Positions 14,257 to 38,150 of a stretch of 40,896 bases of DNA are shown here, piece by piece (the first letter of the stretch is position 1; each line of letters opens with the position of its first letter). A model generated the notes under the pieces. The model searched no databases. It was not told the DNA's origin and saw only the letters and a program-made list of their open reading frames with translations. The position numbers and the translations under genes were made by a program. This DNA is from Eubacteriales Family XIII. Incertae Sedis bacterium (lineage in GTDB: Bacteria > Bacillota > Clostridia > Peptostreptococcales > Anaerovoracaceae): the NCBI GenBank assembly GCA_031290135.1, contig JAITOE010000056.1, forward strand, positions 1-40,896, read 5' to 3'.

Positions 14257-16962
<2,706 letters not shown>

Positions 16963-17004
16963 GATTCATAACAGTCAATCACGGCGGGTTCCGTCACCAA
17001 ACGG

Positions 17005-17055
17005 AAGGGCGCTTTTCGGCTGTTTTTCGGCCGCGAAAACCGCCCTTGCTTTTTC
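17005..17055 (+). terminator. Hairpin plus T-rich tract downstream of the histidine kinase gene
   Basis: aagggcg ... cgccctt closing stem with inner ttttcgg/ccg(c)gaaaa pairing, followed by gctttttc. Confidence 0.5.
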
Positions 17056-17074
17056 ATGCCGTAAAATGTATAAT
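17046..17074 (+). promoter_or_regulatory. Predicted promoter for mgtE: TTGCTT, 17 nt, TATAAT
   Basis: TTGCTT 17046-17051, TATAAT 17069-17074. Confidence 0.55.
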
Positions 17075-17077
17075 TGT

Positions 17078-17238
17078 AGGCGACCTCCGAAAACCCCGCT
17101 GTGCCATCGGAAGAGGATTTTTTTCGTCGGGCTAGGCGGCGGGTTCCGCTGATACTGGCGGTATTAGCGGGTTCCGCCAACAACGCCCGGCGGAAAAAAG
17201 ACCGTCCGGGGGTGCGGCGGGGTTTTCGGAGGTCGCCT
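17078..17238 (+). repeat. 161-bp long-hairpin element with perfect 22-bp terminal inverted repeats, in the mgtE leader
   Basis: aggcgacctccgaaaaccccgc at 17078-17099 is the exact reverse complement of gcggggttttcggaggtcgcct at 17217-17238; further inner complementary segments. Confidence 0.85.
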
Positions 17239-17308
17239 TTAGAGGCTGAAACGGTCTTTGAAGCGTCTGCGTGGGCGTATGCGGGTTCGCCGGAAAGGGA
17301 AAGGCCCG

Positions 17309-18685
17309 ATGGAAAACGAAAAAACCTTTGAAGAGATTTCGGCGGAAATCATCGCGCTGTTGGACGCGAAAAAATACATCCGCGCACGGGATGAAATCCT
17401 GAAGATCAACGAAGTCGATACGGCGGAGCTTCTGGAAGAGATCATCGAAGAACTGGGCATAGAATATGCGGTCATCCTGTTCCGCATGCTGCCGAAGGAC
17501 GTCTCCGTGGAGGTGTTTTCGTATTTGCCGCCGGACGACCGGCTGGCGATCATCAACGTCATTACCGACAAGGAACTGAAATACATCATCGACGAGCTGG
17601 ATTTTGACGACATGATCGACGTGCTGGAGGAGCTGCCGGCGAACATCGTCGATAAGATTCTCGAAAAGACGACAAAGGAAGAACGCAAGCAGATCAATAC
17701 GTTTTTGAACTACCCGGACCGCAGTGCCGGAAGCCTCATGACGCCGGACTACATCAGCCTGCAAAAGGGAATGACGGTGGAGGCCGCCATGGCGCATATC
17801 AAGCGGGTCGGGATGGACAGCGAAACGATCTACACCTGCTACGTGAAGGACCAGGGCAGGAAGCTCATCGGGATCGTGTCCCTGCGGGCGCTCGTCATCG
17901 CGGACAGCGACGCCCGCGTCGCCGACATGCTGGACGAGGACATGGTGTACGTGAACGTCTACGACGACCAGGAAGATGTTTCGGAGATGTTCAAAAAGTA
18001 TGGATTTCTGGCGATTCCCGTGGTAGACAACGAAAAACGCCTGGTGGGGATCATTACGGTTGACGATATCTTCGGCGTCATCGAAGAGGAATATAACGAA
18101 GATTTCGAGAGGATGGCGGGCGTTCTGGATTCGGGCGACGCGGAATATATGGACATCGGCGTGTTCAAGCATGTGTGGAACCGGCTGCCGTGGCTGATTT
18201 TCCTCATGATTTCGGCGATGGTCACGGGCAGCATCATCCGCAGCTTCGAGGTGCTGCTTTCCAATGTCATCAGCCTTGCGGTCTATCTGCCGCTGCTCAT
18301 GGGGACGGGCGGAAATTCCGGCTCCCAGACGGCGACCCTCGTCATCCGCGGCATGGCGGTGGGCAACCTGGAGCTGCGGGACGCCCTGCGGGTGCTCTGG
18401 AAGGAACTGCGCGTCAGCATTACCATCGGATTCATCCTCAGCTGCCTGAATTTCGCCAAGATATTGCTGTTGGACCGGGAAAGCTTGGTCGTCGCGGCAA
18501 CCGTGTGCATTTCCATGCTGGTCATCGTAACGATGGCGAAGTGCATCGGCGGCATGCTGCCGATGCTGGCGAAGCGGGTGGGCATAGACCCGGCGCTCAT
18601 GGCGGCGCCGATGATCTCGTCGCTGACGGATCTGGTGTCGTGCATCACCTATTTTTCGCTGGCAACCATCGTATTGAACACCTAA
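17309..18685 (+). CDS. mgtE: Magnesium transporter MgtE
   Basis: MgtE_N repeats, CBS domains (GSLMTPDYISLQKGMTVEAAMAHIK), TM domain with LPLLMGTGGNSGSQTATLVIRGMAVG. Confidence 0.96.
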   Translation: MENEKTFEEISAEIIALLDAKKYIRARDEILKINEVDTAELLEEIIEELGIEYAVILFRMLPKDVSVEVFSYLPPDDRLAIINVITDKELKYIIDELDFDDMIDVLEELPANIVDKILEKTTKEERKQINTFLNYPDRSAGSLMTPDYISLQKGMTVEAAMAHIKRVGMDSETIYTCYVKDQGRKLIGIVSLRALVIADSDARVADMLDEDMVYVNVYDDQEDVSEMFKKYGFLAIPVVDNEKRLVGIITVDDIFGVIEEEYNEDFERMAGVLDSGDAEYMDIGVFKHVWNRLPWLIFLMISAMVTGSIIRSFEVLLSNVISLAVYLPLLMGTGGNSGSQTATLVIRGMAVGNLELRDALRVLWKELRVSITIGFILSCLNFAKILLLDRESLVVAATVCISMLVIVTMAKCIGGMLPMLAKRVGIDPALMAAPMISSLTDLVSCITYFSLATIVLNT

Positions 18686-18764
18686 CCCGGTTTCTGCAAG
18701 AAACCGCTGGTAGGTGTCATGCAAGGCTCTCCAAAATCTATGATTTTGTGAGAGCTACTGCTGA
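18680..18764 (+). repeat. 85-bp two-hairpin intergenic repeat, copy 1
   Basis: acctaacccggtttctgcaagaaaccgctggtaggtgtcatgcaaggctctccaaaatctatgattttgtgagagctactgctga; about 80/85 identical to the reverse complement of 29837-29921. Confidence 0.9.
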
Positions 18765-18779
18765 ACTTAGGATGAACAA

Positions 18780-22375: not shown

Positions 22376-22452
22376 CCATTCCGTCATTGCGAGAAGCGCA
22401 CCGTGAAGCAATCCATATGCACTGGACTGCTTCGACCCGCTCGCAGCGACAA
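22376..22452. repeat. Dispersed imperfect-palindrome repeat (GTCATTGCGAG class), copy 2
   Basis: ccgtcattgcgagaagcgcaccgtgaagcaatccatatgcactggactgcttcgacccgctcgcagcgac. Confidence 0.7.
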
Positions 22453-29818: not shown

Positions 29819-29836
29819 AATGCCTCCTGTTTTGCT

Positions 29837-29921
29837 TCAGCAGTAGCTCTCACAAAATCATAGATTTTGGAGAGCCTTGCATGGCACCTACCGACGATTT
29901 CTTTCAGAAACCGGGTTAGGT
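29837..29921 (-). repeat. 85-bp two-hairpin intergenic repeat, copy 2
   Basis: Reverse complement matches 18680-18764 with about 5 mismatches; starts 2 nt after the stop codon of the ACT-domain gene. Confidence 0.9.
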
Positions 29922-29923
29922 GC

Positions 29924-30187
29924 TCAAATTCGGTGCATGGAATTAAAAATATCCTCGTGCATGACATGGATCGTCATGCCGTCCACGTTCTGCTTCAGTT
30001 TTTCCTGAAGTTCCGCCAGTTCGCAGTCCATCTTCGCCATGTCAATCAGCATGACCATGGCAAAAAACTCCTGCAGCACGGATTGCGTCACTTCTATCAC
30101 GTTGGCGTTGGCCTCCGCGCAGGTCGTGCTGACCTTTGCCAGAATCCCCACCATGTCTTTGCCGATTACCGTTATTACCGCTCTCAC
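29924..30187 (-). CDS. ACT domain protein (UPF0237 type)
   Basis: MRAVITVIGKDMVGILAKVSTTCAEANANVIEVTQSVLQEFFAMVMLIDM. Confidence 0.93.
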   Translation of the reverse strand: MRAVITVIGKDMVGILAKVSTTCAEANANVIEVTQSVLQEFFAMVMLIDMAKMDCELAELQEKLKQNVDGMTIHVMHEDIFNSMHRI

Positions 30188-35396: not shown

Positions 35397-36248
35397 ATGG
35401 TGCGAATCATGAAACACGTATGGGAAAAAGCGCTGGCCGCGTGGGCTTTGGTCCGCCCGGCGCTCCGGACGTCGGCCCGCCGGGCCTACGGAATAGCGCT
35501 GGAATGGCTCTACCCCTCTTCCATATACTGCATGTCCTGCGGGAACCTGATAGACGAATCCCGCCCCTACGCCCTCTGCGACGCCTGCATGGGGAATTTC
35601 ATATGGGCGACGGGCAAAAACTGCGGCAAATGCGGCACGATTTTAAACGGGGCGGCGGCGCAGGGCACGGAACCGGCGCTGTGCGGCGCCTGCGCGGACG
35701 GGGAACGCGCCTTCGAAAAAGGCTTTGCCTGTGTTGCTTACAGCAGCGGGCGGGAGGTCGTCCGCAGGTTCAAGTACGGGGGACGCGCCTATTACGGCGA
35801 AAAGATCGCGCGGATTTTATATGACCGGCTTCTCCCGGAACTGCCCGGCGTGGATCTGGTCCTTACGGTTCCCATGTACCGCAGGAAAGAACGGAAGCGG
35901 GGCTATAACCAGGCCGACCTGGCGGGCAGACCGCTTGCGCAAAAGCGGGGGCTGCCCTATGCCGGGGACGTCCTGCTCCGGACGCGGCGCACGGAGGCCA
36001 TGAGCCGGCTGGGGACGGAAGAGCGGAACGCGAACGTGAAAGGCGCCTTTGCCGTGGCACCGGACAAGGCGGGGCAGGTAAGCGGCAAGCGCATCCTATT
36101 GGTGGATGATATTTTTACGACGGGCAGCACGGTCGAGGCCTGCGCCGAAGCGCTTCTTTCGGCGGGCGCCGGGCAGGTGTACTTCGCGGTGTTTGCCATC
36201 GGCAGTGATGATTCTTCGGATTCCGCGGCTGTCCGGGTCTGTGGTTGA
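35397..36248 (+). CDS. comF: ComF family protein (zinc ribbon + phosphoribosyltransferase-like)
   Basis: YCMSCGNLIDE..YALCDACMGNF, CGKCGTIL, RFKYGGRAYYGEKIARIL, KRGYNQADLAG, ILLVDDIFTTGSTVEACAEALLSAGA. Confidence 0.93.
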   Translation: MVRIMKHVWEKALAAWALVRPALRTSARRAYGIALEWLYPSSIYCMSCGNLIDESRPYALCDACMGNFIWATGKNCGKCGTILNGAAAQGTEPALCGACADGERAFEKGFACVAYSSGREVVRRFKYGGRAYYGEKIARILYDRLLPELPGVDLVLTVPMYRRKERKRGYNQADLAGRPLAQKRGLPYAGDVLLRTRRTEAMSRLGTEERNANVKGAFAVAPDKAGQVSGKRILLVDDIFTTGSTVEACAEALLSAGAGQVYFAVFAIGSDDSSDSAAVRVCG

Positions 36249-36440
36249 AAGTCCAGGCCAGCTACGGGCAAAAGGACCCACGTAAGCTGATCCGCAAGGC
36301 GGGCAGTGATCATGGCGTAGCTTAGAAGTAAGTCCTCCGGCAAAGCCGGCAGGCGGGTGTGGGGGCAAAGACCAGGTCAGCCGGACAGCCGCGGGCTCCG
36401 AAGATTTATCCACACCCGCGCTTTGCGGGCGCGGGAGGCA
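36205..36440 (+). ncRNA. Candidate structured RNA downstream of and overlapping the comF 3' end (possibly raiA-motif-like)
   Basis: 36212-36236 pairs with 36381-36405 (22/25 complementary plus one G.U); gcgggtgtgg pairs with ccacacccgc; cc.ccggc-aaa-gccgg.agg hairpin; taagct/agctta pairing. Confidence 0.55.
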
Positions 36441-36945: not shown

Positions 36946-37839
36946 ATGGGAAAGAAACGCGCCCCTGCGGCGAAAGGAACGACGGAACTCAGATACAAGC
37001 TCACCAACGACATCCTGTTCAAGATGGTCTTCGTGCAGCACCCGGAGCTGCTCAGGCGGCTGGTCGCGGAGCTGCTGGGCATACCTTACGGCAACATAAC
37101 GGAGTTCGAGGTGACGAACGCCGAGATACCGCCGGACCTGCTCGGCGACAAATTCTGTAGGCTCGACGTCAACATGAAAGTTGACGGACGGCGGGTGGAT
37201 CTGGAGGTCCAGGTCGCCGATGAGCACGACTACGCGGAGCGTTCCCTGTACCTGTGGGCGCGGGAATACTCATCCGCGCTCCAGGCGGGACATGGCTACG
37301 CCGAGCTTCCCCGCGTCGTCGTGCTGAGCATCGTGGACTTCCCGATGTTCGACGCGGAGGACTTCCATTCGGAGTTCCTGCCGCTGGAAGCGAAGCGCGG
37401 CACACCGCTGACGGACAGGATGTCGCTGCATTATTTCGAGCTTCCGAAAATACCGGAGCCAACAAGTGCGGACGGCGAACTTAAACTGTGGCTCGCGCTG
37501 TTCGGGGCGAAGACGGAGGAGGACATCATGAAGATTCAGGAAATGGACGTGCCGGTCATGGAACAGGCGATAGGAGCCTACCGCGCCGTTTCAGCCTCGG
37601 ATGAATTCCGCGAGATGGAACGTCTGCGCGACCTTGCCCGCCACAACGAGGCTTCGGCGCTGGCGAACGCCCGGCGCGAAGCAACCGCTGACGCTGATGC
37701 TAAATGGCAGGGCGTGGTTGCCGACAAGGACGCGGCACTCGCCGACAAGGACGCGGCACTCGCCGACAAGGACGCGGCCGTTGCGGAGCAAGCGGCGATA
37801 ATTGCCGAACTTCGCGCACAGCTCGGTAAAGACAAATGA
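36946..37839 (+). CDS. Rpn family recombination-promoting nuclease/putative transposase (PD-(D/E)XK)
   Basis: LTNDILFKMVFVQHPELLRRLVAELLGI, CRLDVNMKVDGRRVDLEVQVADEHDYAERSLYLWAREYSSALQAGHGYAELPRVVVLSIVDF. Confidence 0.92.
   Translation: MGKKRAPAAKGTTELRYKLTNDILFKMVFVQHPELLRRLVAELLGIPYGNITEFEVTNAEIPPDLLGDKFCRLDVNMKVDGRRVDLEVQVADEHDYAERSLYLWAREYSSALQAGHGYAELPRVVVLSIVDFPMFDAEDFHSEFLPLEAKRGTPLTDRMSLHYFELPKIPEPTSADGELKLWLALFGAKTEEDIMKIQEMDVPVMEQAIGAYRAVSASDEFREMERLRDLARHNEASALANARREATADADAKWQGVVADKDAALADKDAALADKDAAVAEQAAIIAELRAQLGKDK
37720..37782 (+). repeat. 21-bp in-frame tandem repeat x3 in the Rpn C-terminus (ADKDAAL heptad)
   Basis: gccgacaaggacgcggcactc at 37720 and 37741, gccgacaaggacgcggccgtt at 37762. 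Confidence 0.95.
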
Positions 37840-37890: not shown

Positions 37891-37997
37891 CAGATTCGAC
37901 ATATCGAAAACGGAATTCGACTTTTCACTTTTTATTTAAATAATCGTTACTGTTATGAATCTTGGGTATGTAGGATCACTATTTCTTGCCGCAGTAC

Positions 37998-38150
37998 TCC
38001 CTCTGTCATTGCGAGGAGCGAAGCGGCTTCCGTCATTGCGAGGAGCGAAGCGACGAAGCAACCCAGTGCCAACGGAGCCGGCCCCGCCATACAGGCGACG
38101 AAACAATTTACATGCGCTGCATTGCTTCGATACGTTCGCAACGATGGACG
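37998..38150. repeat. Dispersed GTCATTGCGAG-class repeat, copy 3, with a duplicated left arm
   Basis: gtcattgcgaggagcgaagcg occurs twice (near 38005 and 38033), followed by gacgaagcaacccag ... ctgcattgcttcgatacgttcgcaacgatgg. Confidence 0.75.

What the first reader, a model, noticed from the sequence alone, without database searches (positions are those of the whole stretch)
17046..17308. A 161-nt mgtE leader closed by a perfect 22-bp helix that begins at the predicted transcription start
A TTGCTT-17-TATAAT promoter (17046-17074) predicts a start around 17080. The leader from 17078 to 17238 is bounded by exact 22-bp inverted repeats. It has an inner ttttttcgtcggg/cccggcggaaaaaa pairing and an apical gctgatac/gtattagc hairpin, then ~70 nt to the mgtE ATG. 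MgtE genes are classic riboswitch targets (M-box/ykoK), but I do not recognise M-box conserved sequence. It may be a new Mg2+-linked leader, or a MITE-like element that has landed in the leader.
Basis: partly seen in the sequence, partly recalled or inferred. Interest (0 to 1): 0.66.

Follow-up and report, generated by a model that had tools for sequence, protein, structure and literature searches.

The report
Mobile palindrome inserted before mgtE
The giant hairpin in front of the magnesium-channel gene mgtE is not a magnesium switch but one copy of a small palindromic mobile-DNA element, whose relatives, with different outer arms around a conserved core, are scattered through Clostridia, Streptomyces, Acidobacteriota and other bacteria and are absent from the Rfam RNA catalogue.

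Summary
In detail: 17078-17238 is a palindrome with exact 22-bp arms that begins 4 nt after a TATAAT and ends 70 nt before the mgtE ATG. The Mg2+-riboswitch reading is not supported: no M-box hit, and no relative's mgtE leader holds the palindrome. The nearest relative (MgtE 82% identical) keeps a similar promoter without it, so the leader looks like an insertion. The same genome holds about 40 related places at unrelated loci. Only one other copy has the full architecture with the same outer arms; about 30 carry the same ~94-nt core inside quite different inverted arms, and short arms-only derivatives exist. This is a MITE-like palindromic repeat. No transposase with matching ends was found and target duplications are not evident, so I stop at 'MITE-like'. 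Covariance models of the core find relatives, often multi-copy, in 37/291 Clostridia, 8/297 Actinomycetota and 14/149 Acidobacteriota genomes, and BLAST finds them on Streptomyces plasmids. Arms differ between lineages while pairing is kept; a 5-bp stem beside a conserved internal loop covaries strongly. The family is absent from Rfam 15 and was not found in the literature I could search. Its effect on mgtE expression is untested.

The parts
17078..17238 (.). whole palindromic element (D-arm family), 161 bp
   Evidence: inverted repeats; second full copy C54:24828-25016, 82% identical
17078..17099 (+). left terminal arm, exact 22 bp
   Evidence: same end in other elements of the genome
17217..17238 (-). 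right terminal arm, exact reverse complement of the left
17113..17206 (+). conserved core shared with elements that have other arms
   Evidence: about 30 genomic copies; model R1 match 17102-17213, 102.7 bits
17046..17074 (+). likely mgtE promoter, TTGCTT-17-TATAAT
   Evidence: similar promoter before mgtE of G006; not called by the consensus scan
17005..17054 (+). terminator-like hairpin and T-run after the upstream gene, overlapping the -35
   Evidence: read from the sequence; only a smaller part was listed by the scan
17309..18685 (+). mgtE
   Evidence: Pfam MgtE_N, CBS, MgtE; orthologues in relatives
14257..16962 (+). upstream hybrid histidine kinase
   Evidence: Pfam GAF, HisKA, HATPase_c, Response_reg

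Best explanation
17078-17238 is one copy of a non-autonomous, MITE-like palindromic mobile element that inserted into the 5' untranslated region of mgtE just downstream of the -10 box. Shown: related copies at many unrelated loci of the same genome, inverted arms, arms-only derivatives, absence from mgtE leaders of relatives while the nearest one keeps a similar promoter, and a core found in other phyla with covarying pairing. Inferred: it is moved in trans by a transposase that recognises the arms (not identified). Inferred consequence here: mgtE mRNA starts a few nt inside the element and carries a very stable ~160-nt 5' hairpin without a terminator T-run, which should alter mRNA stability or RNase III processing rather than sense Mg2+.
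For: 58 BLAST pieces in the own genome, one full second copy; core in A/B/C elements with other inverted arms, A copies 95-100% identical and often at contig ends; five shortened D-arm copies and one half copy, arms-only copies of other families; copies next to unrelated genes; no match at mgtE of relatives although G006, G012, G024 hold related elements elsewhere; no Rfam family; multi-copy relatives in other genomes.
Against: Only two full-length copies with the window's own arms. No consistent target-site duplication. No transposase with the same ends in this genome (89% complete) or, for its own arms, in complete genome G234. No filled/empty pair from the same species was available.
Confidence: 0.9

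Rival explanations
1. It is a new Mg2+-responsive riboswitch or leader that controls mgtE.
For: Position between a promoter and mgtE; very stable fold.
Against: No M-box; palindrome missing at mgtE of 29 relatives; family members at unrelated genes; a nearly continuous perfect helix leaves little room for a ligand-dependent alternative fold (inference).
Confidence: 0.03
2. The core is a structured nucleic acid with a function of its own, a small RNA or a protein-binding hairpin of DNA or RNA, that has been carried into several mobile-element families; the window copy is one carrier.
For: Conserved core sequence and internal loops with covarying pairs across phyla; some copies lie between tRNA genes (L153), in a 16S-23S spacer (L155), or before genes reading as rpsL and rplK (L176, L198).
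Against: Copies within one genome are multi-copy and bounded by lineage-specific inverted ends, as mobile repeats are. Transposition itself could keep the symmetry. Invariance of the AGGA...GAC loop was partly imposed by the search pattern and regex; model-found copies vary there.
Confidence: 0.25
3. It inserted as a mobile element but has since been adopted by mgtE as a useful mRNA-stabilising 5' hairpin.
For: The arms are still perfectly paired over 22 bp, and the transcript should start just inside it.
Against: No second genome of the species to test conservation; perfect arms are also expected of a recent insertion.
Confidence: 0.15

Closest known systems
Prokaryotic MITEs (review PMC10969869)
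   Same: Short, non-coding, terminal inverted repeats, intergenic, transcripts fold as stable stem-loops.
   Different: Here the core is conserved across lineages while the arms vary; in the usual picture the ends match a parent insertion sequence. No parent and no clear target duplication found.
REP / REPIN palindromes (PMC3733652, PMC2817692)
   Same: Repeated extragenic palindromes.
   Different: REPs are 20-40 bp with GTAG or CGTC tags; this element is about 160 bp with other ends. RAYT transposases were not searched for.
M-box (ykoK) magnesium riboswitch, RF00380 (accession from memory)
   Same: Occurs in leaders of Mg2+ transporter genes.
   Different: No covariance-model match here.
BOX elements of pneumococcus (from memory)
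   Same: Modular repeat with parts that combine differently.
   Different: Here one core sits in different ends, across phyla; no sequence relation was tested.

Membership tests
M-box (ykoK) riboswitch | Match to the Rfam covariance model | tested here: not met
   (gathering and E <= 10)
MITE | Terminal inverted repeats | tested here: met
   exact 22-bp arms
MITE | Several copies at unrelated loci | tested here: met
   only two full copies with these exact arms
MITE | Short and without a transposase gene | tested here: met
   161 bp; no transposase in the element
MITE | Target-site duplication | tested here: inconclusive
   A/B/C copies are flanked by TA on both sides; D copies and G234 copies show no consistent duplication
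MITE | Ends shared with an autonomous insertion sequence | tested here: inconclusive
   none found with A or D ends in an 89%-complete genome nor in G234
REP / REPIN | 20-40 bp palindrome with a GTAG or CGTC tag | tested here: not met
   length about 160 bp; ends AGGCGACC/GGTCGCCT
Known Rfam 15 RNA family | Any match of the core at gathering score | tested here: not met
   (window element and 16 diverse loci)

The most novel reading that the evidence does not exclude
An undescribed superfamily of palindromic mobile elements spans at least Bacillota, Actinomycetota and Acidobacteriota, in which a conserved hairpin core (AAGGCGGAGGA...GACGACAACGC and flanking internal loops) is the functional heart, recognised as folded DNA or RNA by a dedicated partner, while the terminal arms are replaced from lineage to lineage.
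Probability: 0.35. Interest if true: 0.78.

Novelty: new variant of a known kind. Interest (0 to 1): 0.57.

Why it matters
For mgtE it removes a false riboswitch candidate and warns that mobile palindromes can pass for leaders when they land beside a -10 box. More broadly, one hairpin core that persists across phyla inside unrelated inverted ends does not fit the usual picture of a MITE as a deletion derivative of one insertion sequence, where the ends are the conserved part. Finding what recognises the core would show how such elements move and why they stay palindromic; covariance models make members easy to find.

Tried and rejected
M-box or another Rfam family: none. A mgtE-specific regulator: rejected from copies elsewhere and palindrome-free leaders of relatives. 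Autonomous parent with the same ends: searched by end patterns in G000 and complete genome G234; only elements, halves and arms-only derivatives were found. Target duplications of TA, TNA or YTAR type: no consistent result; in G234 the two flanking triplets agree in about half the copies, as expected by chance for T(A/T)A. One Streptomyces copy lies about 500 bp before an IS110 transposase gene; the two other annotated Streptomyces stretches with intergenic neighbours on both sides show none, so a link to IS110 bridge RNA was dropped, though not excluded. Pattern hits lacking the right half (e.g. L171, Nitrobacter) were treated as chance. The control with the element masked by N is meaningless (N paired with N) and is not used. 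Literature searches by sequence strings and terms found no description.

Full report
Observation. The sequence at 17078-17238 is as described: exact 22-bp inverted arms, inner T-run/A-run pairing and an apical hairpin. The longest inverted repeat within 250 bp in 60 first-order Markov simulations of the window is 14 bp, against 22 here; RNA folding gives z = -10. TATAAT ends 3 nt before the element, and the ATG of mgtE (Pfam MgtE_N, CBS, MgtE) is 70 nt after it. The -35 is weak and sits at the 3' end of a terminator-like hairpin of the upstream histidine-kinase gene; the consensus scan does not call the promoter. The nearest relative has TTGATTTTTTGTGCCGTTATAATGTATAAT before its mgtE, which supports the promoter. 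Transcription would then start about 3 nt inside the palindrome.

What it is. In the same genome (2.76 Mb, 274 contigs, 89% complete) the 161-bp query finds 58 BLAST pieces, with only 40 of 80 candidates scored. One is a second full copy with the same arms (C54, 82%), beside genes reading as an acetolactate-synthase small subunit and a molybdenum hydroxylase. Five shortened copies of about 46-56 bp (C171, C114, C178, C142, C151) and one half copy (C100) share the arms. About 30 places share only the core (query 36-129, mostly 77-91% identical), embedded in other, mutually inverted arms: family A (TTATTGCTCCGACAATTAAAC..., about 162 bp, copies 95-100% identical, many at contig ends), B and C. 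A/B/C elements have TA on both flanks. Arms-only 45-61-bp derivatives exist for these families too (C90, C264).

Empty site. Of 61 genomes (own and relatives), 56 have mgtE; none of the 29 relatives' leaders read contains the palindrome. G006 (MgtE 82% identical) has the similar promoter with TATAAT 87 nt before the ATG; without the element the window's TATAAT would lie about 79 nt before the ATG, as in the short-leader relatives. G006, G012 and G024 do hold related elements, but at other contigs and with other arms. So the mgtE leader was most likely lengthened by an insertion.

A wide family. A degenerate core pattern found 88 stretches in one-genome-per-species contigs, mostly 'Clostridiales Family XIII' MAGs, but also Acidaminococcales, Coriobacteriia, Gracilibacteraceae, Peptococcaceae, Oscillospiraceae and Acidobacteriota MAGs; a few hits lacking the right half are chance. 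Model R1 (24 diverse cores) finds the core in 37 of 291 Clostridia genomes, including single-contig genomes with 12 matches among the 13 candidates scored. A Streptomyces plasmid copy led to 29 Streptomyces plasmid records. Model R2, built from 22 sequences that already included four Streptomyces and one Acidobacteriota copy, finds it in 8 of 297 Actinomycetota and 14 of 149 Acidobacteriota genomes, and in 2-65 copies in the nine genomes or records chosen because they carry it. Actinomycetota copy L325 is a long palindrome with arms unrelated to the window's (z = -13); Acidobacteriota copy L333 folds no better than shuffles (z = -0.9) and L336 looks like a chance hit, so the counts at E <= 1e-5 include some false or decayed matches. 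MAG hits may include binning errors; Streptomyces isolates do not have that problem.

Structure. On alignment A1 the 19 named pairs are 95.0% paired against 80.6% in shuffles; double-change cells are 68 against 22, covariation 0.404 against 0.123, and the signal vanishes when partners are slid. The outer 5-bp stem has double changes in all five pairs. It flanks an internal loop AGGA/GAC that is invariant in A1; but the left side of that was imposed by the search pattern and the right side by the extraction regex, and model-found copies vary there. The structure was derived from the same alignment, so percent paired leans towards it. Covariation shows that the palindrome is maintained; it does not tell DNA from RNA function.

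Mechanism. Most likely a transposase acting in trans recognises the arms (inferred). No autonomous element with these ends was found in G000 or, for its arms, in G234, and duplications are not evident, so I call it MITE-like and not a proven MITE. At mgtE the expected result is a large 5' hairpin on the mRNA; any regulation is untested.

Known or new. It is absent from Rfam 15. I found no description in the open-access literature searched; ISfinder, subscription journals and preprints were not searchable, so parts of it, the Streptomyces elements above all, may already be described.

Noticed in passing
mgtE loci of relatives L059, L061, L062, L064, L066, L067, L068, L074, L075, L077, L085: These have a longer mgtE leader (TATAAT about 200-314 nt upstream) with a short upstream ORF starting near AGGAGGTGAAAGC-ATGGA (MD/ME, often followed by P/G/S, e.g. 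MEPVPSHS..., MDSHNNSAGSGPADSS...) and, in several, a downstream GCTTTC that could pair with the GAAAGC at the uORF start. No Rfam match. Possible undescribed mgtE leader; absent in the window.
   Followed up: partly
36228-36389: raiA RNA (RF03072), 141 bits.
   Followed up: no
18674-18765 and 29836-29927: 92-nt inverted pair, 93% complementary, the first copy overlapping the end of mgtE: a further dispersed repeat.
   Followed up: no
16954-17006 and 37949-37970: CATACCTAAGATTCATAACAGT occurs at the end of the histidine-kinase gene and inverted at 37949; similar sequence, with the following CAATCACGGCGGGTTCCGTCACCAAACGG, is also near another element in L137: a second short repeat family just upstream of the mgtE promoter.
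   Followed up: no
22380-22403, 38002-38025, 38029-38052: GTCATTGCGAGGAGCGAAGCG-type dispersed repeats.
   Followed up: no
37720-37782: Three tandem 21-nt in-frame repeats GCCGACAAGGACGCGGCACTC.
   Followed up: no
L153 6806-7151, L155 2831-2855, L188 6118-6594: Core copies in odd places: between tRNA genes in a Coriobacteriia MAG, in the 16S-23S spacer of the Olavius gamma-3 symbiont, and three tandem copies in a Family XIII MAG.
   Followed up: partly
L137:330-450 and L140:490-640: Right halves of the core, or look-alikes, standing alone just after promoter-like sequences in 5' leaders of other genes of the same genome.
   Followed up: no
L030:450-560: A 56-bp arms-only copy lies about 9 nt after a TATACT -10-like box before a gene reading as glycogen phosphorylase, much like the window copy at mgtE.
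   Followed up: no
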